Source: a virus
Direction: 5' to 3' (one strand)
DNA: 26,302 nucleotides
Virus record (IMG/VR): IMGVR_UViG_3300046465_000052
Coordinates: 1 to 26,302 of that record
Shown here piece by piece: positions 448 through 24,389 of this stretch (position 1 is its first letter; each line of letters opens with the position of its first letter). A program made the translations under genes and the position numbers. The notes beneath the pieces were generated by a model that saw only the letters and a list, made by a program, of their open reading frames with translations, did not search any database and was not told where the DNA came from.

Positions 448-713
448 TCGTGACCGAAGCAAAGTTGACTGAGATTACTGGATACACAAAGAATCAGATC
501 AAGCACCGCCGGTTGCAAGCGTGGAACAAAGGCATACATTATTGGGCTGATCCTGCAAACACGACTGTCTACGATACGGAGGCAATAACGGCATGGCAGA
601 CAAAACAGCGACCGGAATCAGAAACAAGCGCGGAAAATGCGAAATTCGGTGGTGGGAAGGCAACGTCAGGCGATCAGAGACGTTACCCATCGCCTATAAC
701 CAAACTGGTATAG
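444..713 (+). CDS. excisionase-like (recombination directionality) protein
   Basis: An 89-residue protein immediately before the integrase. LTEITGYTKNQIKHRRLQAW has the form of the winged-helix/HTH start of phage excisionases, and GIHYWADPANTTVYD followed by AITAW matches the W/G-hH-...-Y-...-AIxxW pattern of that family. The expected role is to bind the attachment region and turn the integrase towards excision. Its C-terminal 40 residues are polar and low in structure, and the gene runs 121 nt into the integrase gene in another frame. Phage lambda and P22 also overlap xis and int, but by much less. The start is supported by the overlap with the DUF3310 stop. The family call rests on short motifs plus position; it could be another MerR-like regulator. 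Confidence 0.65.
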   Translation: MIVTEAKLTEITGYTKNQIKHRRLQAWNKGIHYWADPANTTVYDTEAITAWQTKQRPESETSAENAKFGGGKATSGDQRRYPSPITKLV

Positions 714-1669
714 CGTCAGCGCAGCGCATTCGCGCTCGCAAGATTCAAGCATTTATTGAAGGGCACGAGGAGGCGACAGAATGGCAGCCCATGCCCACCT
801 TCGGCCAAATGGCTCAAGACAAACTGAACGAGATTAGGCACGGCAAGCCGTCGTCGCATCGCGCAATCAAAAGCCGACTACAAATTTACTGGATGCCTAA
901 ACTGGGCCAGCACCTGTTAACGCAGATCAAACAAAAGCACGTCAAAGAAATCGTTAACGAAATGCGCGACCTGGGACGCTCGCCCAAGTACATTCGCGAA
1001 GTGATTAGCGCGGGGAGCAGTGTCATGCAGATGGCGATCGAAAACGAATACATCGACCACAACCCTGCCTTAGCTGTCTCGCGCGCATTTACGCGCAAAA
1101 CAAAAACCAAGGTGCAGATAGATCCGTTCACGCAGGAAGAAATGAACGCCGTCATGCCGCTGTTAAATCACGACGACAAACTCTTCTTCGCTTTACGCTG
1201 GTATTGCGGGCTACGACCTGGCGAAGTAATTGCGTTGACTCGCCAAGATGTTCGAGATGGCTACATCCACGTCACGAAGTCGCGCGTCGAGGGTAACGAC
1301 GGTACAACGAAAACAGGAACCGAGCGCAAGGTGCCGTTACCGCCTCAAGTTGCAAAGCTCATATCGAGCCGAGTAACTGACTTACGAAACGACCACTTGC
1401 TGCTCACGCAATACGGCGAGCCGTACCTAAAACCTAGAGTCTTCAATGAGCGTTTTGTGCGCGCTTTGAAAGAAGCGGACGTTAGGTATCGCAACCCCTA
1501 CAACGTCCGACATGGTGCTGCGTGCCGCATGCTAGCGGCGGGTATGAAGCCAGGTTATTGCGCAAAAATTCTTGGTCATTCGCTGCAAATGTTCTTCACG
1601 ACTTACGCAAATTGGATTGATGCGGAAGAGACAAAAGCGCAAGAAAATATAATGCGCTCACTTAAATAA
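593..1669 (+). CDS. int: tyrosine-family phage integrase
   Basis: A 358-residue tyrosine recombinase that would insert the phage at a tRNA gene and, with the excisionase-like protein, excise it. The N-terminus (about 6-55, GIRNKRGKCEIRWW and a basic helix) looks like the DUF3596-type arm-binding domain. Residues about 65-165 form the core-binding, SAM-like domain. The catalytic domain shows R208 (GLRPGEV), K240 (TTKTG), R306-H307 (PYNVRHG), H329 (LGHS) and the nucleophile Y338 (TTYANW). The usual HxxR histidine is Y303, as in several P22-like integrases. The start is supported by GGAGG at 578-582, 10 nt before ATG. The gene ends 75 nt before a 3' tRNA fragment, the normal place for the attachment site. 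All catalytic residues are present, so it should be active. Confidence 0.95.
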   Translation: MADKTATGIRNKRGKCEIRWWEGNVRRSETLPIAYNQTGIASAQRIRARKIQAFIEGHEEATEWQPMPTFGQMAQDKLNEIRHGKPSSHRAIKSRLQIYWMPKLGQHLLTQIKQKHVKEIVNEMRDLGRSPKYIREVISAGSSVMQMAIENEYIDHNPALAVSRAFTRKTKTKVQIDPFTQEEMNAVMPLLNHDDKLFFALRWYCGLRPGEVIALTRQDVRDGYIHVTKSRVEGNDGTTKTGTERKVPLPPQVAKLISSRVTDLRNDHLLLTQYGEPYLKPRVFNERFVRALKEADVRYRNPYNVRHGAACRMLAAGMKPGYCAKILGHSLQMFFTTYANWIDAEETKAQENIMRSLK

Positions 1670-1909: not shown

Positions 1910-2116
1910 TTAGACCAGCAAATTAAGCGTCGAAGACGACGCCAGCTGCTGCACTTCCACCCGCCCATCCTTAGCCGTGTAGAGCGTAGGCTGGATCGTC
2001 TCAACAGCCTCACGCACAAGCTGGCCCTCGCCGCCGGTGCGCAGCACTTCCTGGCGCTGCACGGCGACTGTCTTCCAGGTGACCGGCGCAGGCGCGCTTG
2101 TCATTGAGACGTCCAT
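1910..2116 (-). CDS. small protein at the distal end of the late operon, unknown
   Basis: A 68-residue protein, the last gene of the leftward operon. I do not recognise a family. It is a polar, mostly beta/alpha mixed sequence (VTWKTVAVQRQEVLRTGGEG, then VREAVETIQPTLYTAKDG) without membrane segments or cysteines. It is preferred over the other frames here because its ATG overlaps the stop of the large gene before it (TAATG, 2114-2118), the junction type used through the whole operon. It follows four candidate ejection proteins, so a small virion or assembly role is possible but unproved. Its stop lies 10 nt from one of the attP direct repeats. Confidence 0.6.
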   Translation of the reverse strand: MDVSMTSAPAPVTWKTVAVQRQEVLRTGGEGQLVREAVETIQPTLYTAKDGRVEVQQLASSSTLNLLV

Positions 2117-3921
2117 TACTGCTGTTGCAGACCTGCCGTAGCGCCGGCGGTGCCGTAAAAGATGTTCGGCAAACGACGCTGAGCCGCTGCAATAAACGTA
2201 TCAACGCTCTCTGAAGTCGCTTCGGACATCAGCCTGGCAGATAGTTCTGGATCAAGCATGGCCTGCACCACTAACTCTTGGATGTCGTCTTCGCCTAGAC
2301 CTAAAAAACTTAGTCGAGACGCCAGCGCTTGTGCCGGTTTTGTTTCGCTTAGTCCGCCAAAAGTGCGGCCAATCAACGCTGCAATGCTCAAGTTTTTCAT
2401 TGTGTCACTGCCTGGCGCTTTTACACCTGGCGCAGTAGCTGCAGTTGAGCGCTGAATGTCTGACAGGATTCTGTTGACCCTTCGCCGTTGCGCATCGCTA
2501 AGCCTGGCTAGTTTTTCTCGACCTGCTGGGCCGCGCAGTTGAGATGTTAATTTTGCAGGGCTTAGCACGCCATCACCAGTCACTAGATTTGGCGTTGCGA
2601 CTTCGCTACGCATTTGTATGTCTTGCAGCGTTTCCATTTGGTTAACCGGGCCGCTGCGTTGTGCGTAGGTTGATAGATAATCAGCAAAACCTGGCGCTGC
2701 AGATTCTAACCTTTCATCAATCATGCCGATAATTTCGCCAAGCTGCTTTCTAGCCAGCCTTTGATCTTGGCCGTCGCCCGACAATCTGCCTTGCGTCGCG
2801 CGGACAATCTCTTTGCGTAGGCCGTATAAGTCTTCAGCACTTATCGGTAACAAGTTGCCATCTGCGTCTGCCGTGAGCGTCTCTAATTCTTTGATGTAAA
2901 CGTCAATCGAAGAACGAACGGTCTTTTGGCTGCGCACGCCGGGCTTGTTCCTCACTGACATCATTGAGTCAATGAGCTCATTACTGTCGATGACGTCAGC
3001 GCCATCAAATGCGTTTTCTAGCATTGGCAGCGCAGCGGCGTCGCGCTTGCCTTTGGCAAACTCTACTGCCTCTGGATCTCTTGCCATTTGCGATAGCATT
3101 TCCGTGCGCGCCTGTTGCTGGTCAATTGCCCGTTGACCAATACGGTTAGCTGTATCTACGGCTCTAACAGGCGTTTCAAACGCCGCTAGGCCAGGATCGC
3201 GAGCAGCTTGCGCTGTTGTTGGTACGCTACCCGGCACGCGAACGTCGGCGTTTGTCTGCAGATTTTTTACTGCTCGATCTGGATCTGTCGCGACTGACCT
3301 TAGCAAGTTGCCCACTATCTTTTCTTGCTCGCTATTTAGAAGCGGCTTAACAACATCTTTACCTACGCCAATTGCGTTCGCGCCTGCGGGGATTAACGCG
3401 CCAAACATACCGCCTTGTATAGCGCCCGACGTGCGATCTTCATTCTCTGACAATGCTCCTGCTACTGCTCCTTCGCCTGCGCCTAAGCCCATACCTCTTG
3501 CAAGCGTCGCCAGCCTTGCCGTGTTCGCGGCGGCAGCTGCCCCACCAGTTGGCGCACCGACTCCAGGGATCGCAGTCAAAGCAGCCGTTGTGCCTAAAGC
3601 GCCAAGTGTTTGGCCAGTGAAAGCCTTGCCTGGATTATCAGACTGATAGTTTTGGATGCCTTGGTTAACAGCTGAAACTTCGTCCGCGTATGGGTTGCCA
3701 GACATTAAAGATCGGGCAAAGCCAGCGGCCTCATCGAACCCGCCCATAAGCGCGCCTTGTAAAACTTGCGTGCCAAAACCCGACTCGTCTGCACGAATCC
3801 GCAAGTCCTCTGGTGATATTTTTTCCGTCTCGTAGTACGACTCAATCACCGCTGCTGGTGCGTTTTGGTCGCGCAGCTTTTGCAGGTTTCTCAGATGACG
3901 GTCTTTGGTTTCGTTTTTCAT
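2116..3921 (-). CDS. putative DNA-ejection (internal virion) protein, 601 aa
   Basis: A 601-residue protein near the end of the late operon. Residues 1-45 are charged and helical. About 101-187 form a long Gly/Ala-rich, weakly hydrophobic region full of GxxxG-like spacing (FTGQTLGALGTTAALTAIPG, GGAAAAANTARLATLARGMG, GGMFGALIPAGANAIG). About 190-600 are polar and helical, with Arg/Asp-rich stretches. Large proteins with a glycine-zipper hydrophobic block placed after the nozzle genes of podoviruses are typically ejected from the capsid and may line a channel across the cell envelope, as P22 gp16/gp20 or T7 gp15/gp16 do. I see no lytic transglycosylase motif. It is coupled by TAATG at both ends. 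Virion role likely; exact function inferred. Confidence 0.6.
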   Translation of the reverse strand: MKNETKDRHLRNLQKLRDQNAPAAVIESYYETEKISPEDLRIRADESGFGTQVLQGALMGGFDEAAGFARSLMSGNPYADEVSAVNQGIQNYQSDNPGKAFTGQTLGALGTTAALTAIPGVGAPTGGAAAAANTARLATLARGMGLGAGEGAVAGALSENEDRTSGAIQGGMFGALIPAGANAIGVGKDVVKPLLNSEQEKIVGNLLRSVATDPDRAVKNLQTNADVRVPGSVPTTAQAARDPGLAAFETPVRAVDTANRIGQRAIDQQQARTEMLSQMARDPEAVEFAKGKRDAAALPMLENAFDGADVIDSNELIDSMMSVRNKPGVRSQKTVRSSIDVYIKELETLTADADGNLLPISAEDLYGLRKEIVRATQGRLSGDGQDQRLARKQLGEIIGMIDERLESAAPGFADYLSTYAQRSGPVNQMETLQDIQMRSEVATPNLVTGDGVLSPAKLTSQLRGPAGREKLARLSDAQRRRVNRILSDIQRSTAATAPGVKAPGSDTMKNLSIAALIGRTFGGLSETKPAQALASRLSFLGLGEDDIQELVVQAMLDPELSARLMSEATSESVDTFIAAAQRRLPNIFYGTAGATAGLQQQ

Positions 3922-12300: not shown

Positions 12301-14073
12301 TTAGATTGCTGAGATGATGAAGGCTAGTAGTTCTGAGTAGCGCACACCTAAGCGTGTATGCTCGTTACCATCGTCATCAGTCCATGTGTTTGATATAAAC
12401 ATTGCGTAGCGTCCAGCGTCTAAGCCTTCAGCGGTGAATGCGTCTTGTAAGTCTTGTGCAATGATTCCAAAGTGAATACGAGCATCATCACCGTTTTCTT
12501 CTACGCTGCTAATCCATCTGAACTTACGCAGTAAGCCTTTAGCTGCTACCGCAACCCGCTGCTCTGCGTCAGACAGTGCTTCAATGTCCTGCTTTTCGTT
12601 GCGGTCAGAAGTTTGGATAGTGCCGTTGGTAGCGTAGATGTCATCCCAGCGTTTTGTAATAAAACCTAGGTCATTTGCATTATCGTTTGTAGGGTAAAAC
12701 TGTGTTGTGTCCCAAGCATATTCGTCAGTTCCGTTAATCTGTAAACGGCCACCAGTTGTGCCGCTGATAGATAAATAACCTCCAGCAATACTGCCAATAC
12801 TACCGACTGGGGTGCCGTCTTTCTTAAATACCGCAATGGTTCCGTCAGTGGTTAGCCTGTCGAGGTTTAGCGGTTCATCACTATCTCTGGTGACTCTCAA
12901 AGAGCTACCGTTGAAGTAGACCATTCCTTCGTTGCCAGCAGTTGTCGTAGTAGTACCAACCAGCAAGTTGCCACCAGAGAGGCGCATGCGTTCTGTGGTA
13001 TCGTCCCTAAACCTAACGTCTTGTGCTTGGATTTGCAGTGGTCTAGCATTGCCACCACCTGTTTCTAAAGCATGTATTCGTCTAATGCTATCTGTTGAGT
13101 TGTAGTCAACACGCACTACTGCGGCGGCGGCGGTTTCAGTGTTTACCTCTAAATAGCCGTCATTAATTTTTACATTCCCACCAGAGATGCGCATGCTTTC
13201 TGTAAAACCAGCCCCAGTTACAGGATTAGTGCTACTGCCAATCCTATAATATCCATTAGAATCAATAACATCAGTAACATCACTTGTAGTGCTAATAAAC
13301 CTACTGGCTTGACCAGTACCAGTTGTAGCAGAACCGTTCTCTTGTATAGATATTGCGTTGGCTGTACTAGACTTAAGATGCAAAGGCGCACTAACTGAAC
13401 TAGTACCTATTCCAACGGAGCCACCATTTAGAATTGTAACCGCATCACTTGAACCGACGTTGAAAATTATGTCCTGTGGCGCAGTTACCTTTAAGTCTCT
13501 GCCACCATTTTGGACGTTAATCTTAGACGCCGCGAAACCTCCATCAGTATCCTCTAGCGTGATTTCAGTTGCGCCTGTTGATTCAAAGGCTCCAGCGGTA
13601 GCAGTCACTGTGCCCGTAACGTCGATGCCTGTGGTGGTTAAACCCGAAAGATTCGCAGACAAACCACTCAAAGCATCCGTAACTGCGCCAGTAGCGCCTG
13701 CGCCGTCTGTGACAATCATCTTTACCGCACCAGCAGCAACAGCGACGTTAGCGCCAGAGCCTTGGGTGAATGTCAGCGTGAAAGACGTTTCGTTGCTGAT
13801 GATCCAGACCTTGCTGATCGTATTAGGCGCAAGCGTCACCGTACACGCCTGGCCACCGCCAGTGCATTTCAAGTACATGCTGCGCGCTTCGTCTGCAGCG
13901 CCGTCTGCTAGGGTTATCGTGTGAGTTGATGCGTTAGGGATCGCTTCACTGCCCTGGCCAAACGCACTCGCTATGTTGCGTATGGTGGTGTTGAGAAGAC
14001 CGCCCCAAGTTCCCGAATTGGATCCCGACTCCTGTTCCCGGAGGCGAAGCGAATTGGAAAAGACGTCAGCCAT
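12301..14073 (-). CDS. tail fibre/spike with C-terminal S74 autochaperone
   Basis: A 590-residue receptor-binding candidate. The N-terminus (NSLRLREQESGSNSGTWGGL, LNTTIRNIASAFG) is the usual virion-attachment start of such fibres. The middle (about 100-470) is a Gly/Thr/Ser-rich beta repeat region with returning MRISGGNV and MRLSGGNLLVGTT units. The C-terminal 103 residues are an intramolecular chaperone of the peptidase S74 family: TSDRNEKQDI gives the Ser489/Lys494 catalytic dyad, and FGIIAQDLQDAF and LGVRYSELLAFI complete it. The chaperone trimerises the fibre and then cuts itself off. Both dyad residues are present, so release should occur. The gene is followed by small proteins that may assist it. 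Confidence 0.9.
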   Translation of the reverse strand: MADVFSNSLRLREQESGSNSGTWGGLLNTTIRNIASAFGQGSEAIPNASTHTITLADGAADEARSMYLKCTGGGQACTVTLAPNTISKVWIISNETSFTLTFTQGSGANVAVAAGAVKMIVTDGAGATGAVTDALSGLSANLSGLTTTGIDVTGTVTATAGAFESTGATEITLEDTDGGFAASKINVQNGGRDLKVTAPQDIIFNVGSSDAVTILNGGSVGIGTSSVSAPLHLKSSTANAISIQENGSATTGTGQASRFISTTSDVTDVIDSNGYYRIGSSTNPVTGAGFTESMRISGGNVKINDGYLEVNTETAAAAVVRVDYNSTDSIRRIHALETGGGNARPLQIQAQDVRFRDDTTERMRLSGGNLLVGTTTTTAGNEGMVYFNGSSLRVTRDSDEPLNLDRLTTDGTIAVFKKDGTPVGSIGSIAGGYLSISGTTGGRLQINGTDEYAWDTTQFYPTNDNANDLGFITKRWDDIYATNGTIQTSDRNEKQDIEALSDAEQRVAVAAKGLLRKFRWISSVEENGDDARIHFGIIAQDLQDAFTAEGLDAGRYAMFISNTWTDDDGNEHTRLGVRYSELLAFIISAI

Positions 14074-14083
14074 TATTTAATCC

Positions 14084-14731
14084 TCAAGCTGCCCGTTGCC
14101 ATGATGTGCTGGCGCTGGGCTGTTTTGTGTATGTCGTGCTTGTACCGGCTTGTTCCGTGTATGCTGTGCTTGCACCGGCCTGTTCTGTGTACGTCGTGCT
14201 TGCGCTGGATTCGTCTGACCAGCTGGTTGCGGCACCCGGTTCGGTTTGCCACTTAATCTCGCCAGAAGCCGTGACTGTGCTTTGAGCACTGATCGCTGCA
14301 GCGCCAAAGCGGATTTGACCGCCGTTTGCTGTAAACGTAGAAGCAGCTGCGATAGCTGCCCTACCGTTAGAAATAGTGCTAGACGACGCAGTGACTGAGC
14401 TCGTTGCGCTAATCGCAGCAGCTGCGTGGACAACCACGTTTGCATTCGCGCTAACGCTAGACGAAGCCGCAATGAGCGCAGCAACGTGTCTAAACCGCTG
14501 ACCGCTTGCCGTAACTGTTGAAGAGGCCGAGACTGTTGCGCTTGCTTCCCTAATGCGACCGCTATTGGCAGTAACCACAGAGCTAGCACTGATAACTGCC
14601 GCAGCGTTTGCCACCACCTGCGCAGCCGCTGTAACACTCGCTGTAGCAACGACAGTCGCGCTAGCGTCGTAGTAACTCCATTGACCATAGCGGCCAGCAT
14701 TCCAACTACCGTTTCCATATCCCTGACTCAT
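14084..14731 (-). CDS. fibre-like protein with exact 20-residue and 10-residue repeats
   Basis: A 215-residue Ala/Ser/Thr-rich protein. After a Gly/Tyr/Trp-rich start (GYGNGSWNAGRYGQW) come seven units of exactly 20 residues, of the form AAxISASSxVTANxxxxRxx, with the T/S of VT[A] at 34, 54, 74, 94, 114, 134 and 154. From 161 the period halves: aromatic residues stand at 161, 171, 181, 191, 201 and 211, in units such as YTEQAGASTA. A strand-turn-strand repeat building a beta shaft or solenoid is the natural reading. It lies between a virion protein and the S74 fibre, so a fibre shaft or decoration is likely. Another frame (14077-14718) gives a Leu/Gln/Arg-rich product, which is a shadow. Starts directly after the previous stop (TAAATG). 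Confidence 0.75.
   Translation of the reverse strand: MSQGYGNGSWNAGRYGQWSYYDASATVVATASVTAAAQVVANAAAVISASSVVTANSGRIREASATVSASSTVTASGQRFRHVAALIAASSSVSANANVVVHAAAAISATSSVTASSSTISNGRAAIAAASTFTANGGQIRFGAAAISAQSTVTASGEIKWQTEPGAATSWSDESSASTTYTEQAGASTAYTEQAGTSTTYTKQPSASTSWQRAA
14102..14251 (-). repeat. 30-bp tandem coding repeats (10-residue units)
   Basis: The 3' part of the fibre-like gene holds units of 30 bp. The copies around 14122-14201 are nearly identical (for example GTGCTTG[TC][AG]C...CTGTTC on the + strand), while the outer ones have diverged. They encode the [YW]TEQAGASTx units. Near-identical neighbouring copies make the unit number open to change by slippage. Confidence 0.75.
14240..14659 (-). 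repeat. 60-bp period coding repeats (seven 20-residue units)
   Basis: Seven in-frame units of exactly 60 bp without insertions or deletions between copies. The DNA has diverged more than in the 30-bp units further on, so these are older duplications held by protein structure. Confidence 0.75.
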
Positions 14732-18090: not shown

Positions 18091-18320
18091 GGGTTATTCC
18101 GCTGTTTTGCGAAAGCAATCTCGTCGGCTGCTGCGCGCATCCGCACAACAATGTCGTCGAGTGCTTCCTGTTTTTGATGTAAGCGCTCCCGCATAGCGGG
18201 GTCACGTTCCTTGCACCACAGCTCGAAGAAATCGAGCCTTAGCATTTCGATGAGCTCGGCAAAGTCTTCGTCGTCTGCCAAGCGTTGGATGTTGAGTAGC
18301 GAGTTATGCGACAGGGGCAT
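18087..18320 (-). CDS. small helical protein between portal and scaffold
   Basis: A 77-residue, strongly helical and charged protein (NIQRLADDEDFAELIEMLRL then DFFELWCKERDPAMRERLHQ, and KQEALDDIVVRMRAAADEI). Small proteins of this helical type are usual behind the portal gene in phages with this head type; their role is unknown, possibly assisting portal or scaffold assembly. Its start lies 17 nt inside the portal gene end and its stop overlaps the scaffold ATG (ATGA), so translation is coupled on both sides. No recognised domain. Confidence 0.65.
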   Translation of the reverse strand: MPLSHNSLLNIQRLADDEDFAELIEMLRLDFFELWCKERDPAMRERLHQKQEALDDIVVRMRAAADEIAFAKQRNNP

Positions 18321-20385
18321 TCGGCACCTGTTGTTGTGCGGCCAGCTGCCTTACGAGCTCGCGGTCGCGGTCTGCATTAGCGCGTATCGACGCGACATCG
18401 ACCTGCGCGCCATACCTAGCGTTCATCTCCGCTGCCTTGAGCGCTATGTTTGCTTCGCTCTCGTCTCGCCGGCGATCGTCTTCGCGAATCATCTTTTCGC
18501 GTTCGAGCTCTAGCTCTGCCTGCTTCTTCTGAATGTTGGCTTGTATCTCAGCCATCTGAACCTGGATCAGCTGCTCGTTGATGTCAGGCTTTGGCGGCTC
18601 TGGCGGTGTTGGCGGCTGCTGACTTGGGTCTTTGAAGAACCGCTGCGGGTCTTTGAAGCCAGAGACTTCGAGTATCTGTACCAGCGTCTGGTAGTAGTTC
18701 TCAACGCTGACCAGTGGGTTCTCTGGGCCAAGCTGCTGCAATAGCTGCTCTTGTTTGTCAGCGACTTGTTGCAGCATCTGCATGCGCTCAACGTCGCCGC
18801 CCTTACCCAACACCACGTTACTAACGACATCCATGTTTGCGTGCCATCTATCAGGGCTCATGGGCACAAACGTGTTGCGCAGCCTGATCATCCGCGGCTT
18901 GTCCATATGCTTGATGATCAGCTGCAGCAAGCCTTTGTATAGCCGCGTCATGCCGCCATCGGCGAACAGCCTGGCAATCATCTCAGTGCGCTGCTGAGCG
19001 GCTCCTATGGTCTGCTGTACGGCCATTAACGTGGAGCTCTGCAACGCGCTAGGGTCGAGCCCGTCAGCCGCCTTAGAGACGCCTGTGCGGTTCTCACGCA
19101 TCTGGTCTAGGTAGTCGAGCATCGGGAATGCTTCTTTACCGACAAAGGGCAAGTTAAACGGCACAACAGCGCCAGGCTGACGCATTCTGATCACGCCGCC
19201 GGCTTCGTTATTCATCACGTCTTCCAGGCTCGCTTGGCCTTCCACGATGCCGACACGCGGGTGCGTGCTCATCGCCAGGCTGTCCAGGCTTGCTCGCAAC
19301 ACGGCGGTCTTGATCCGCTGTATGTCCATGGTCAGGTCGGCGATCGACATGCCAAACATCGCGTGGGGCTCTGGGTCTGGGCAGAAGAACGCAAACGGCA
19401 CCATGTCGGTCGGCTCATTGCGCAGGATTTCGTAATTAGGGCCAGCGCAGCAAATGCGTCGTAGTTCGGCTACGCCATCGCCGTCTGTGTCGATCTTGGC
19501 GTATGCCTCGACATAAAGAACGCGCCGCACCATCTCAGAGTTTTCAAACGAGCTCTGCTGATAGCGCTCGCGTGCTTCGACGTTAAAGAGCTCGAAGTCT
19601 GTGTCACTGGTGGTGGCGTATTGCTCAATCTCGTCGGCGTCGTAGCCGAGCTCGACCATGTCAGAAATTGTGAGGTACGCCCGGTGCGCGACCAAGTCAG
19701 CGTCTTCTAGGCTGCGGGCATTGCGATTGATCACAATCTCTTCTGGCGGCACTGACTCGACCTTAATCTTGCCAACCTTCTTGCGGTGAGTGACGCGAAC
19801 GGAGTGCATCGCCTCGGGGTTGTCGCTTGACGTCATGCTCTTGAGCATGTCGATTTCAACGTCTGGGTTGCTGTTGAGCGCCGCCAGGGCTTCGTCGTCT
19901 AGGTTTTCGAGCTCGTAGCTTTGCGTCTTCTCTGACTCGTCATAGCAATACTTGATAAAGCCAGAGCCCTTCACCAGCGCGTCTTTCATCGTCGCGTAGA
20001 TGATTTCGATGTACGACTGATCTTGGTCTTGGTTCAGTATGTAGTTAACGTAGTCAGTCGCCTGCTTCGCCATCTCAACGTCTTCTGGGCCGGTCGGTGC
20101 GTATTCCACAACGTGGTCAGAGCCACAGAAAATGCGCATAAGAGACGGCAGCATCGCCTGTACGGTATCGCGTACGTCCATCGTTTGTGCGGTGCTGCGG
20201 CCCTCTTCTTCGTTGCCCAGGGGCTCGCCGGCGTAATACTCAGCTGCCTCTGCGCGCACTGGCGAAATAGTGTTGTCGATGAAGTCCACGGCATCTTCGA
20301 TGGCGAGCGTGATTGCGGCCTGGATCTCTTCGTCGCCCATGCCCATGTCTTCTTCGATGAATTCTTCGTCGTATAGTTCTGCCAT
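18304..20385 (-). CDS. portal protein (SU10 type, 693 aa)
   Basis: A 693-residue protein that forms the dodecameric DNA gate at the capsid vertex. Landmarks are AEYYAGEPLGNEEEGRSTAQ then TMDVRDTVQAMLPSLMRIF (residues about 48-90), DYVNYILNQDQDQSYIEIIY then ATMKDALVKGSGFIKYCYD, the VPPEEIVINRNARSLEDADL segment, PFAFFCPDPEPHAMFGMSIA, and QMRENRTGVSKAADGLDPSA then LQSSTLMAVQQ. The last is the most typical portal motif (R-TG-S----GLD----------A). The C-terminal 100 residues are a long coiled coil (KKQAELELEREKMIREDDRR), probably the crown or barrel. Length fits the SU10-like type. The gene follows the ART-like gene by 2 nt. Confidence 0.93.
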   Translation of the reverse strand: MAELYDEEFIEEDMGMGDEEIQAAITLAIEDAVDFIDNTISPVRAEAAEYYAGEPLGNEEEGRSTAQTMDVRDTVQAMLPSLMRIFCGSDHVVEYAPTGPEDVEMAKQATDYVNYILNQDQDQSYIEIIYATMKDALVKGSGFIKYCYDESEKTQSYELENLDDEALAALNSNPDVEIDMLKSMTSSDNPEAMHSVRVTHRKKVGKIKVESVPPEEIVINRNARSLEDADLVAHRAYLTISDMVELGYDADEIEQYATTSDTDFELFNVEARERYQQSSFENSEMVRRVLYVEAYAKIDTDGDGVAELRRICCAGPNYEILRNEPTDMVPFAFFCPDPEPHAMFGMSIADLTMDIQRIKTAVLRASLDSLAMSTHPRVGIVEGQASLEDVMNNEAGGVIRMRQPGAVVPFNLPFVGKEAFPMLDYLDQMRENRTGVSKAADGLDPSALQSSTLMAVQQTIGAAQQRTEMIARLFADGGMTRLYKGLLQLIIKHMDKPRMIRLRNTFVPMSPDRWHANMDVVSNVVLGKGGDVERMQMLQQVADKQEQLLQQLGPENPLVSVENYYQTLVQILEVSGFKDPQRFFKDPSQQPPTPPEPPKPDINEQLIQVQMAEIQANIQKKQAELELEREKMIREDDRRRDESEANIALKAAEMNARYGAQVDVASIRANADRDRELVRQLAAQQQVPNAPVA

Positions 20386-20387
20386 CG

Positions 20388-22817
20388 TTATATTCCTGGT
20401 GCCAGTAGGCCGCCAAATGCCTCAAACGGCGCACGAAAAGCAGCGCGCTCAGCTGGGTCTTCCATGTACTGCTGGTCTAGCAGGCCGCGCATCGCAGGCG
20501 TGCTCATCATGGAATTTGGGTTTTGCGTCGGCGGTAGTTGTTGGTTTTGAATAAAACTATCCATTTGCTGGACGTAGCCCTGCGGGGACGCAATCGCGGC
20601 CCGTGGATCTGGTGCGGCCATGCCTTGCACGAACGTGTCTATGCCGCTCAACAAACCAGATACAAAGCCCTGACCTGCTTCTGCAGCGCGCGGTAAGACT
20701 TGGCTTTGCGCTTCTGCTGCAAGCAGTCCGCTTGGCGGGTTGTCGCGGCGATACTTTCTGCCGCCGGCACGGCGGGCATCAATCTCGTTTTGTATGTCTA
20801 TGTCTTCAGGCGGTATCGCCATAGCATTGCCAGAAGACGTAGCAGCTGCGATTGCGGCAGCACGGCCCATCTTCTTTTTGTCTTCAAGATATTTCATGAC
20901 GCCGTCTAGCCACTGCTGATCGGCTTTCTGGGCGTCTCCGCCCATCAACACTGCGCCAACACGCTCTTGCGCGTTAAGAGGCTCGCCAAAGCGTTTTGAG
21001 CTCTCTTTCGTTATTACCTTGTCGCCAGTGGCTCTGAATAGGTCTGGAAACATGACTTGCAGCGGAACGCTTTCCTCGAGCCCGCCGGCATAGATGCCAG
21101 GGATGCCGTGCGAGTAGGTGTCGTGGTAAGCGTTGTCGAGCAGCGGCGCTCCTGGCATGGCTTTTATTGTGCTGAAGCCGCTGTCGCCTCTTTCGAGCCC
21201 GCGTAGCTCTGGCTCCGTCAAGGCGCGCACTGTGTCTTCGTAGTCGGGAAAGCCTTTGTTGCCGTATTCTTTCTTTTTCATTTCGCCGACGACCAGCTTG
21301 CGCAAATCGTTCGACGACATGGCGTCACCGTTACTTGCACTCACGGCCATCTGGCCTTTCAGTTGCGCCAATCCCTCTGGCGTCTCAACGCCGGCGAAAT
21401 CAGGTACTGACTTGCGGATGACTCTGTTAAATTTTGCGAGCTCTTTCTTCGGCAGCTGCAGAGCGGGCAATTGCCGCACCATCGCCTCGGCGACCATAGT
21501 GTTGAAGTCCATCGCAAGGTCACCCATGCGCGCATACACGCCGCGCACGTCGTCGCCTAACAAGCCCGCCCTGGTAATCTGGTTTTGCTTTGTTTGGGCC
21601 GCGTCACGCATCGACGCCCATCCCAACAAGTTGTTGCCATACGAATTCATCAGCGGGTAGTTAGGGCCACCCTGCAGATATATTTCCTGGTCTAAGGGCA
21701 CGCCTTCGACATTGTCCAAAATCCCACCGGCAATACTGGCGTCACCCTGTATCGGCACCAGCATTTCACCCTGCATAGATTCAGGCGTGATGATATCGCG
21801 CGACATGACGTCTACGTCTGGTGACGCGCCAGGCGTCATGCGCATACGTTCGCGCCGACCAAATGCCGTGCGATCAGCGGCTATTTGCCCCAGGTACTTG
21901 TTAACAGAATTGAGCTCTCGCTTGCTGACCTCTTCGCCACGCAACACTTTGTCCATCGAGGCACGCAAGACCGGCGACAATGAGGCTGTGACGATTCCGG
22001 CCTCTGCTTCCTCTGGCGTAGCCAATGCGGCAGCGCCTAAAAACCCAGCAAGCAACGGCGGCCCACTTGCCAGTATGTCCTCCGATGCAGATTTTTTGGG
22101 ATCGAACTTGGCGTTGATCGAGCGAATTGCGGTGTCATCAAACGCCACAACGACATCAGTGGGTGCGAACAATTTGGCTGCAGCTGCCTCTCTGGACTGT
22201 TTTCTTAGGTCGTCGGGCACATTTGCGTATAACGACTTATCTGCCAATGACTGCAGTTCTTCATCCAGAGTCATAATTGGGTTATGAGTTGGGTTCGCTG
22301 GATAGCCCTGGCCTGCCAGATAATCCATGCGGTTCCTCAGCGTGCCCGACTTAACATTCGGGCCGACATCAACAATGCCCTCTATGATAACGCCTGGGTA
22401 ATCTTCGGAGAGAAGACTCGTAAGTTCGTCGGTGGACGTAATGTCTCGGTCGGCACCTAACTGCAGAAAACTGCGCGCGTCCTGGCCATCGATAGTCATC
22501 CCGTCTAATTTCAAATCACCATACAATTGCCCTGGCGTCGAAGGGCTGACGCGCGCGAAGCCTTCTTTTCTGATGAATACGGGGTAAACGACAGGCGCGC
22601 TCGGATTGCCAAACTCACGCATATTGCCAACGTAAGAAGAGGCGACGTCAGGCGAACCAGACGCAAAAATCCCCGTAGCGGGAACTTCAAACGATTCGAT
22701 GTCCGCGTCGGTGCCGTGGTAATAGACGGTGTCAACGTCGAAGCCCTGCTCGCGTGCTCGAGCAAGTCGGCTAGATTTACCAGGGATTAGCCCTAGCAGG
22801 CCGTCCAGCTTTGCCAA
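20388..22817 (-). CDS. large polyvalent-type protein with N-terminal ART-like domain
   Basis: An 809-residue protein starting at TTG, directly after the stop of the small gene before it (TAATTG) and with AAGGG just upstream; the nearest ATG would remove the N-terminal domain. Residues about 17-240 look ART-like: RLARAREQGFDVDTVYYHGT (H34-G-T36 motif), GIFASGSPDVASSYV (49-63) with a serine and tyrosine, PGVIIEGIVDVG and the closing VVVAFDDTAIRSINAKFDP. Residues 251-274 form a short hydrophobic piece ending in ATPEEAEAG. About 343-400 (QGEMLVPIQGDASIAGGIL, LDQEIYLQGGPNYPLMN) match a segment I recall from large phage and MuF-type polyvalent proteins. Such proteins are thought to be packaged and injected to disarm the host. 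ADP-ribosyl transfer is inferred. Confidence 0.65.
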   Translation of the reverse strand: MAKLDGLLGLIPGKSSRLARAREQGFDVDTVYYHGTDADIESFEVPATGIFASGSPDVASSYVGNMREFGNPSAPVVYPVFIRKEGFARVSPSTPGQLYGDLKLDGMTIDGQDARSFLQLGADRDITSTDELTSLLSEDYPGVIIEGIVDVGPNVKSGTLRNRMDYLAGQGYPANPTHNPIMTLDEELQSLADKSLYANVPDDLRKQSREAAAAKLFAPTDVVVAFDDTAIRSINAKFDPKKSASEDILASGPPLLAGFLGAAALATPEEAEAGIVTASLSPVLRASMDKVLRGEEVSKRELNSVNKYLGQIAADRTAFGRRERMRMTPGASPDVDVMSRDIITPESMQGEMLVPIQGDASIAGGILDNVEGVPLDQEIYLQGGPNYPLMNSYGNNLLGWASMRDAAQTKQNQITRAGLLGDDVRGVYARMGDLAMDFNTMVAEAMVRQLPALQLPKKELAKFNRVIRKSVPDFAGVETPEGLAQLKGQMAVSASNGDAMSSNDLRKLVVGEMKKKEYGNKGFPDYEDTVRALTEPELRGLERGDSGFSTIKAMPGAPLLDNAYHDTYSHGIPGIYAGGLEESVPLQVMFPDLFRATGDKVITKESSKRFGEPLNAQERVGAVLMGGDAQKADQQWLDGVMKYLEDKKKMGRAAAIAAATSSGNAMAIPPEDIDIQNEIDARRAGGRKYRRDNPPSGLLAAEAQSQVLPRAAEAGQGFVSGLLSGIDTFVQGMAAPDPRAAIASPQGYVQQMDSFIQNQQLPPTQNPNSMMSTPAMRGLLDQQYMEDPAERAAFRAPFEAFGGLLAPGI

Positions 22818-22970
22818 TTACTTACCCTTCTTGCTTGGCTTCTTCGTGGGGGCTCTTTTATTGAGCATCTTAGCGATGTCATTCGCGGCGTCTTGCACGC
22901 CGCCTGGGCCACGTCGATAGGTGTTTTTATCTGTATGCGCCATTCGAGCCCCCATATATGCCGATTTCAT
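22818..22970 (-). CDS. small basic protein between terminase and ART-like gene
   Basis: A 50-residue reading from ATG 22970 (alternative starts at 22955 and 22943 in the same frame; the last has GGGGG close before it and would give 41 residues). The product ends KKPSKKGK and has a helix QDAANDIAKMLNKRAP. It is preferred as a gene because it fills the space between the terminase stop and the ART-like gene exactly, with its TAA touching the TTG start of the latter. I do not recognise a family. A hairpin covers the first start codon. The basic tail suggests nucleic-acid or capsid contact. Confidence 0.55.
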   Translation of the reverse strand: MKSAYMGARMAHTDKNTYRRGPGGVQDAANDIAKMLNKRAPTKKPSKKGK

Positions 22971-22988: not shown

Positions 22989-24389
22989 TCAGGTAATTGA
23001 CAGCCCTCGCCTGAGCGGTTTCTGCCAGCTGCTGGCAGCACTCATCGCGCCGCTCAGAGTCATTGCGTCGCTCGCGAACGTGAGGCAAAGCGAGTCGGCC
23101 AAGTCAGGCGAGCGCAGCCCGCGCTTGCGCATCTGGTCTTTGCTTTCCAGCTGCATCTTGCCGCTCGATGTAAATTTGTACTTAGCGCTGACGAGCTCTG
23201 CGAGCAGGTCGTCGTCTTGGGGCAGCGACACGTCACGGGCCTCAAGCCAGGCTTTCACCTTAAACCAGAGCTCAGCGCGCAGGTTGATGTAAGTCGCCTT
23301 GGAGCTCGGGCTCTCGCTGGTGTTGATACCTACCGCCGGCAAGCCGAGCTCACGCAGCCGGTCACACACACCACCGCCAAGACCAATGCTATCCACGTTA
23401 ATCTGAACCGGCTGCGTTCGCGGCTGCTGGCTCTCATACTCGGCAACCACTGCACCGCACAGCTGCATAAGATCCAAGCCCTGCCAGGTTTGTATGCCAA
23501 TGAGCTCTCTGCCCCGGCGCTTGCAAAGCGCACTGCGGTCGGAACCAAAACGGCTGACGTCCAAGCCCCATACAATCGGCTCGTCTTCCGTAATGACAAC
23601 CTCGCGCCTTTGCGCACTCTCGACGAGCTCAAGCGGGATCGCCGTGTCGTCGTCGCGCTGCGGAAACTCGCCAAGCACGCGCACGCGAAAAGCATTGCTC
23701 TCTTCGCCAAAGCGCGCAGCCATCTCACTCACATAGTCGTCACTCACCCTAGGCGAGTCGATGCAGCTGACCTTGCGAGTCCACCAATCGCCCGCCATGC
23801 GGTGGTGGGTGTCAAAGAAAAAGCCAGAGCTCCTGGTCGGGTTGCCGAGCAGAACGGTCGTTGCGTGCTCGCCAGACATCGAGCCAGCTGCTGCCTCAAA
23901 CACCGCCTCGGGGATACCCGACGCCTCGTCGCACACCAACATCACGTTGTCCGAGTGCACGCCCTGCAGCGCTTCTGGCGTTTCTGCCCTGGATGTCCGG
24001 CATGAAATAAACGCCTCGCTCGGCGCGGCCTTCAGGCTTACGCGGTCGCTCTTCACTTCCAAGAGCTCTTTGATCGCCACAGGGCACTCGTTAATCCAGC
24101 GCTTGAGCTCGGCAAACAGCGCGTCGAATAACTGCGCGCTGGTCGGTGCGGTTACGACCACTTTGACGGGATAGCGAGTCAGCAAAAAGTGCAGCATCGC
24201 CCAAGAGCTCGCCGTGGATTTGCCGGTGCCATGGCCAGAGCGCACGCTGATTTTACGCTCGCCAGATGCTATGGCATTGAGGAATTCTTTTTGCCAGGCG
24301 TCGGGCGACTGCTTGAGCACTTGCTCAACAAAAGCGACGGGATCGGTGCGAAAGCGCTTAACAAACGCCACATATGGGTTTTCTGCCAT
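22989..24389 (-). CDS. terL: terminase large subunit
   Basis: A 466-residue DNA-packaging motor. The ATPase part has Walker A SGHGTGKST (51-59, K57) and Walker B VMLVCDEAS (D154, E155), with a TTVLLGNPT coupling motif. The RNase H-like nuclease has D277 (VWGLDVSRFGSDRS), D333 (INVDSIGLGGG) and D429/D432 (SPDLADSL). All expected catalytic residues are present, so translocation and cutting should both work. Length is normal. No obvious small terminase lies before it; instead there is an array of short repeats. The start ATG 24389 is the only sensible one before YVAFVKRFRTDPVAFVEQVL. Confidence 0.95.
   Translation of the reverse strand: MAENPYVAFVKRFRTDPVAFVEQVLKQSPDAWQKEFLNAIASGERKISVRSGHGTGKSTASSWAMLHFLLTRYPVKVVVTAPTSAQLFDALFAELKRWINECPVAIKELLEVKSDRVSLKAAPSEAFISCRTSRAETPEALQGVHSDNVMLVCDEASGIPEAVFEAAAGSMSGEHATTVLLGNPTRSSGFFFDTHHRMAGDWWTRKVSCIDSPRVSDDYVSEMAARFGEESNAFRVRVLGEFPQRDDDTAIPLELVESAQRREVVITEDEPIVWGLDVSRFGSDRSALCKRRGRELIGIQTWQGLDLMQLCGAVVAEYESQQPRTQPVQINVDSIGLGGGVCDRLRELGLPAVGINTSESPSSKATYINLRAELWFKVKAWLEARDVSLPQDDDLLAELVSAKYKFTSSGKMQLESKDQMRKRGLRSPDLADSLCLTFASDAMTLSGAMSAASSWQKPLRRGLSIT

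What the first reader, a model, noticed from the sequence alone, without database searches (positions are those of the whole stretch)
20388..22817. Injected-effector candidate: ART-like polyvalent protein between terminase and portal
The N-terminal 240 residues show a YYHGT motif, a following GIFASGSPDVASSY segment and a closing IRSINAKFDP, an order I recall from ART-like domains of polyvalent phage proteins (a class described by Iyer, Burroughs and Aravind). The rest contains a second module (QGEMLVPIQGD ... YLQGGPNYPLMN) seen in MuF-type and other large injected proteins. Lying in the head-gene block, it may be packaged with the DNA and modify host targets on entry. It uses a TTG start, coupled to the gene before it. 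Direct: motifs and context. Inference: packaging and enzyme activity.
Basis: partly seen in the sequence, partly recalled or inferred. Interest (0 to 1): 0.75.

Follow-up and report, generated by a model that had tools for sequence, protein, structure and literature searches.

The report
Swappable enzyme heads on phage protein
Next to its DNA-packaging genes this phage carries a protein whose front third has the fold of ADP-ribosyltransferases (probably a protein-modifying enzyme); near-identical phages carry a different such domain, or none, on the same rear part, and the joint looks like a signal-peptide cleavage region.

Summary
The ORF is real: 809 aa, TTG start directly after the stop of a small ORF, between terminase and portal. 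Residues 9-245 have an ADP-ribosyltransferase (ART) fold: model pLDDT 89, the 50 listed solved-structure matches are all ARTs, and 40 of 44 relatives match Pfam ART-PolyVal. H34 is conserved; the 'Tyr' is Phe51 (F/Y/W in relatives) and the acid is not settled, so activity is unproven. The claimed MuF-type second module is not supported.

New here: (1) The head is an exchangeable cassette. Phages 91-95% identical on both sides carry a different ART (type B) or none on the same body; identity breaks at 22018 and resumes at 22798, and synonymous distances of head and body disagree (0.09 vs 0.78; 0.91 vs 0.23). (2) ART heads in unrelated phage proteins are often followed by a hydrophobic stretch and A-x-A, like a signal-peptide h- and c-region (33 of 43 hydrophobic tails vs 7.1 in controls); it survives at the N-terminus of head-less versions.

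Best reading: a packaged, injected ART effector with swappable heads. Packaging, activity and cleavage are inferred. ARTs beside terminase/portal are already described; swapping and linker make this a new variant.

The parts
20388..22817 (-). 809-aa protein: ART head, signal-peptide-like linker, conserved body, C-terminal tail
   Evidence: terminase-portal slot conserved in relatives
22083..22793 (-). ART-fold head, residues 9-245
   Evidence: Pfam ART-PolyVal E 0.00033 for this stretch; model pLDDT 89; fold matches
22716..22718 (-). His34, strand-1 histidine of the H-Y-D motif
   Evidence: 43 of 44 relatives
22665..22667 (-). Phe51 at the strand-2 'Tyr' position
   Evidence: F 28, Y 9, W 5 of 44 relatives
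22632..22634 (-). Tyr62, second conserved aromatic position
   Evidence: 40 of 44 relatives
22018..22798 (-). Exchanged cassette: DNA identity with close relatives stops and resumes at these borders
21996..22076 (-). Linker, residues 248-274: hydrophobic stretch and PEEAEAG (A-x-A at 271-273)
20883..21995 (-). Conserved body, about residues 275-645, no known family
20391..20882 (-). C-terminal tail, about residues 646-809, itself replaced in some relatives
22818..22943 (-). 41-aa basic ORF whose stop codon abuts the TTG start
22989..24389 (-). Large terminase subunit
   Evidence: PHROG match
18304..20385 (-). SU10-type portal protein

Best explanation
It is a modular, probably virion-borne effector. 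It is made late with the head proteins from the terminase-portal slot, packaged through its constant body or tail, and ejected with the DNA. The N-terminal ART head then uses NAD+ to modify a host target, as phage T4 Alt does. Heads are exchanged between phages by recombination at two fixed borders: just after the start codon, and at the hydrophobic/A-x-A linker. One delivery part therefore carries an ART of type A, an ART of type B, or none. The linker most likely inserts into or docks at the inner membrane and may be cut after AEA, separating head from body. Shown: ART fold (predicted), gene slot, head exchange, recurrence of the linker. Inferred: packaging, injection, catalysis, membrane role, cleavage.
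For: ART fold: pLDDT 89, pTM 0.85; the 50 listed VIA-align rows are all ARTs (tankyrases, exotoxin A and its relatives, ParT; Z up to 6.9); BFVD hits from E 6e-11, several rows named PolyVal ADP-ribosyltransferase; 40 of 44 relatives match PF18760, best 2.8e-20. Slot: TerL and portal flank it in syntenic relatives, head present or absent. Body relatives at 24-35% identity lie in virion gene blocks, e.g. between terminase and portal in OQ984150, and next to a homolog of the window protein 2116-3921 in MW202879. Exchange: sharp breakpoints in 91-95% identical phages; all combinations of two body lineages and two heads occur; synonymous distances disagree: L007/L014 head 0.09, body 0.78; window/L001 head 0.91, body 0.23; window/L013 head 0.37, body 0.88; dN/dS is 0.07-0.37 in both parts. 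A second swap (L025/L097) has the same border logic. Linker.
Against: No virion proteomics or enzyme assay. Phe replaces Tyr at the strand-2 position and no single acidic column is conserved, so some heads may be inactive. Foldseek finds no PDB match below E 0.06, and the VIA Z stays under 8. The window protein alone scores 18 bits on PF18760 against a cut-off of 31.2. If the linker were cut by signal peptidase in the producing cell, the body might be exported before packaging.
Confidence: 0.6

Rival explanations
1. The ART-fold head is a pseudo-enzyme: it binds NAD, portal or DNA as a structural or docking part, and its variation follows capsid partners rather than host targets.
For: Phe at the Tyr position and no conserved acid in the family alignment; some phages do without the head.
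Against: His34 and two aromatic positions are strongly conserved. Two different ART types alternate on a constant body while portal, scaffold and capsid stay 90-99% identical, which argues against adaptation to capsid partners.
Confidence: 0.2
2. The protein is not packaged. It is made late and acts inside the producing cell, for example against host defences that sense terminase or portal, or against superinfecting phages.
For: The same gene position would result; PMC9503650 names protection of the packaging machinery as an alternative. Head-less forms begin with a signal-peptide-like segment, as an exported protein would.
Against: Distant body relatives also sit in virion gene blocks, in MW202879 beside a homolog of the window protein at 2116-3921. 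In long multi-ART relatives the ART proteins also lie in the late region near tail fibre genes.
Confidence: 0.2
3. The linker is only an alanine-rich flexible spacer that tolerates recombination; it has no membrane role and is not cut.
For: It is short and Ala/Gly-rich, and it coincides with the cassette border. Many other ART heads are followed by something else.
Against: The order hydrophobic stretch, then small-x-Ala is kept in 33 of 43 hydrophobic tails against 7.1 in controls, across two ART types and unrelated downstream parts, with varying codons.
Confidence: 0.45

Closest known systems
ART-PolyVal domains (PF18760) of phage polyvalent proteins, Tox-ART-HYD2 clade (Iyer et al. 2017, PMC5512222)
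   Same: Fold, motif order, His in strand 1, multi-copy relatives, late-gene context.
   Different: Phe at the strand-2 position, acid not settled, own score below the Pfam cut-off. The paper's main text has no hit for 'signal peptide' or 'transmembrane'.
Phage ARTs coded beside terminase and portal (Iyer et al. 2022, PMC9503650)
   Same: Same genomic setting, same proposed injection.
   Different: Exchange of heads on a constant body, head-less alleles and the hydrophobic/A-x-A joint were not seen in the passages read.
T4 Alt
   Same: Packaged, injected ART: the functional model.
   Different: Alt belongs to the R-S-E class; the head here has His at the first position.
Polymorphic toxins and the mosaic polyvalent protein jhp1044
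   Same: Variable effector domains on a constant part, rapid domain exchange.
   Different: The variable part is the N-terminal head, in a phage head-gene slot, with no immunity gene recognised.

Membership tests
ART-PolyVal (PF18760) | Sequence similarity to the family profile | tested here: met
   Domain alone E 0.00033, 21.9 bits, below the 31.2 cut-off; 40 of 44 aligned relatives match, best 2.8e-20, and L030 and L153 pass the cut-off
ART-PolyVal (PF18760) | ART fold | tested here: met
   Model pLDDT 89; the 50 listed PDB rows are all ARTs, Z up to 6.9; BFVD E 6e-11
ART-PolyVal (PF18760) | His in strand 1 | tested here: met
   H34, 43 of 44
ART-PolyVal (PF18760) | Tyr in strand 2 | tested here: inconclusive
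   Phe51 here; F 28, Y 9, W 5 among 44 relatives, so an aromatic residue rather than Tyr is the rule in this branch
ART-PolyVal (PF18760) | Asp in strand 5 | tested here: inconclusive
   D221 and D227 are candidates; neither column is acidic throughout
ART-PolyVal (PF18760) | NAD-dependent transferase activity | not testable with these tools
   needs an assay
Polyvalent proteins | Several unrelated effector domains in one polypeptide | tested here: inconclusive
   One recognised domain plus an unknown body; relatives have up to three ART copies detected
Polyvalent proteins | Coded with packaging or virion genes | tested here: met
MuF-type proteins | MuF domain | tested here: not met
   No MuF match in Pfam or PHROGs at E<=1
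T4 Alt family | R-S-E active site | tested here: not met
   His at the first position; R-S-E as defined
Polymorphic toxin-like systems | Variable effector part on a constant delivery part | tested here: met
   (N-terminal instead of C-terminal; delivery itself untested)
Polymorphic toxin-like systems | Adjacent immunity gene | tested here: inconclusive
   Only the 41-aa ORF abuts the head, and it does not vary with it
Signal peptidase I substrates | Hydrophobic stretch followed by small residues at -3 and -1 | tested here: met
   AEA|G after a hydrophobic stretch; 33 of 43 related tails against 7.1 in controls
Signal peptidase I substrates | Cleavage | not testable with these tools
   needs N-terminal sequencing

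The most novel reading that the evidence does not exclude
These injected phage effectors are built like polyproteins. Each ART module is followed by an internal signal-peptide-like element that inserts into the host inner membrane during ejection and is cut by the host's own signal peptidase, separating the effector from its delivery part. The same joint is where phages swap effector heads.
Probability: 0.22. Interest if true: 0.8.

Novelty: new variant of a known kind. Interest (0 to 1): 0.55.

Why it matters
ARTs beside terminase and portal have been listed as probable injected effectors, but their delivery and turnover are little explored. Here nature supplies closely related phages that differ mainly in the head (type A, type B, none), which would let one ask what the head does for infection. 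The recurrent hydrophobic/A-x-A joint gives a precise, testable idea of how head and delivery part might be separated, and may help to find module borders in other injected phage proteins.

Tried and rejected
The first structure job, on an alignment with poorly matched long inserts, gave pLDDT 46 and was discarded; a tighter 44-sequence alignment gave 89. PDB sequence searches with the body and the type B head found nothing, with the type A head only chance-level hits. Foldseek against PDB gave nothing below E 0.06. A single-protein genome-contig search found no relative; the alignment search found three weak ones in MAGs, one of which (L212, an Acidobacteria MAG) also has a hydrophobic stretch and AxA after its ART. 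tblastn of the type A head in the phage records found nothing. A MuF identity for the body was looked for and not found. A DNA-level reason for the linker motif (shared recombination sequence) was rejected because synonymous codons vary. Virion mass-spectrometry evidence was sought: Sulfitobacter phage phiGT1 has a related ART gene (phiGT1_5) between portal and scaffold, and PMC10386132 did virion mass spectrometry, but the result per protein is in Figure 1 and Table S3, which could not be read. No paper describing the linker was found in two searches. Distances in the active site could not be measured because coordinates are not exposed.

Full report
What was checked. The ORF at 20388-22817 (minus strand) is 809 aa with a TTG start. 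The TTG directly follows the stop of a 41-aa basic ORF (TAATTG or TAGTTG) in the window and in 12 related loci (the ORF). The neighbours are a large terminase subunit and an SU10-type portal, followed by scaffold, SU10-type capsid and SU10 adaptor genes. The record is a 26.3-kb viral contig with a tyrosine integrase at the other end. The host is unknown.

The head. Pfam ART-PolyVal matches the whole protein weakly (E 0.0053, 18 bits, cut-off 31.2) and the domain alone at E 0.00033. Of 44 aligned relatives, 40 match the model, the best at 2.8e-20. A model built on that alignment has mean pLDDT 89 and pTM 0.85. A second-look structural alignment lists 50 PDB entries, all ADP-ribosyltransferases: tankyrases, exotoxin A and its relatives, ParT (Z up to 6.9). 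Viral predicted structures match from E 6e-11, and several listed rows are named PolyVal ADP-ribosyltransferase. The Foldseek E-values against PDB are weak (best 0.06), so the fold claim rests on the uniformity of the list together with the Pfam link. His34 is kept in 43 of 44 relatives and Tyr62 in 40. The strand-2 position described as Tyr for this family (PMC5512222) is Phe51 here and F, Y or W in 42 of 44. No acidic column is conserved throughout. Activity is therefore likely but not shown.

The head is a cassette. A scan of viral contigs found many relatives that match only from about residue 266 on, at 69-99% identity. In DNA several of these phages are 91-95% identical to the window on both sides, but identity stops at 22018 and resumes at 22798 (L003, L007, L009, L010, L011). 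The replacing segment encodes another ART (type B, YHGSPxxFDxF ... GxGxYFA), which also hits ART-PolyVal below the cut-off and aligns with type A at 92.6% probability. In L012 and L016-L018 the cassette is absent and the protein is 568-569 aa. Two body lineages each occur with both head types. Synonymous distances show that heads and bodies have separate histories: L007 against L014, head 0.09 and body 0.78; window against L001, head 0.91 and body 0.23; window against L013, head 0.37 and body 0.88. dN/dS is 0.07-0.37 in both parts, so both are under purifying selection. A second case, L025 against L097, swaps one ART subtype for another between nearly identical flanks, and the C-terminal tail changes too. 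In L140/L141 the whole gene is replaced by a different ART gene between terminase and portal regions that are 87-90% identical in DNA. More distant phages carry yet other ART proteins in the same slot (L150, L167, L194).

The linker. After the ART domain comes ILASGPPLLAGFLGAAALATPEEAEAG (residues 248-274): a hydrophobic stretch followed by A-x-A. The same order follows type A and type B heads in unrelated proteins, and also stands before a following ART in some multi-ART proteins. Among 79 non-redundant tails with at least 60 aa following, 32 have a hydrophobic 12-mer followed by A-x-A; shuffles give 5.6 on average (maximum 11 in 200 runs) and other windows of the same proteins 3.0 (maximum 8). 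In a second test that did not select for A-x-A, 33 of 43 hydrophobic tails carry a small residue at -3 and Ala at -1 within eight residues of the end of the stretch, against 7.1 in controls (maximum 14 in 500 runs). The set was gathered with queries that included some of these tails, so the exact enrichment is approximate. Synonymous codons vary, which points to selection on the protein. In head-less versions the element stands at the N-terminus and looks like an ordinary signal peptide. Iyer et al. 2017 has no hit for 'signal peptide' or 'transmembrane' in its main text, and two literature searches found no description of such an element.

The body. Residues 275-645 have no match in Pfam, PHROGs, NCBIfam or the PDB sequences. 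Relatives at 24-35% identity occur in four phage records, in each case among virion or packaging genes: between terminase and portal in OQ984150, and next to a homolog of the window protein at 2116-3921 in MW202879. This supports a virion role for the body. A MuF relation is not supported.

Mechanism. Inference from context and from T4 Alt: synthesis with head proteins, packaging, ejection with DNA, ADP-ribosylation of a host target. The linker could anchor the head at the inner membrane or be cut there. Cutting in the producing cell would conflict with packaging, so the site would have to act at ejection, or the element is uncut and only inserts or docks. Packaging, activity and cleavage are each open.

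Known and new. ARTs in polyvalent proteins, and ARTs coded beside terminase and portal, are already described (PMC5512222, PMC9503650). New here, as far as the papers searched show, are the demonstrated exchange of ART heads on a constant virion-linked body, with all head/body combinations and head-less forms, and the recurrent signal-peptide-like joint. I rate it a new variant of a known kind.

Noticed in passing
window 22818-22943 (-): 41-aa Lys/Arg-rich ORF (45 aa from an upstream in-frame ATG) between terminase and the ART gene; its 3' end and stop are conserved in relatives whatever head follows.
   Followed up: partly
window 14077-14731 (-): Two overlapping ORFs in different frames (213 and 215 aa) over an alanine-rich repetitive region; relatives such as L028 (ORF at 13903) have repeats with VTTDAEANVTLTGQAITS-like units.
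   Followed up: no
window 593-1669 (+): Tyrosine integrase on the opposite strand: the phage is probably temperate.
   Followed up: no
L025:1690-3582 and L097:697-2607: Relatives whose middle domain is replaced by an unrelated one (VTMYRAVPNDKN ... GDFVTLSPKYAEIHAYSGYG), which from memory resembles R-S-E type ARTs; Pfam gave no match for that part.
   Followed up: partly
L154, ORF at 701 (+), 388 aa: A non-ART ORF upstream of an ART protein that begins with the same hydrophobic/DDAEAG element at its N-terminus.
   Followed up: no
L026 (after residue 725), L028 (after 303), L064, L067, L086, L089: A second recurrent follower of ART heads, LLKAxGGxI/V-like, stands where others have the hydrophobic/AxA element; meaning unknown.
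   Followed up: no
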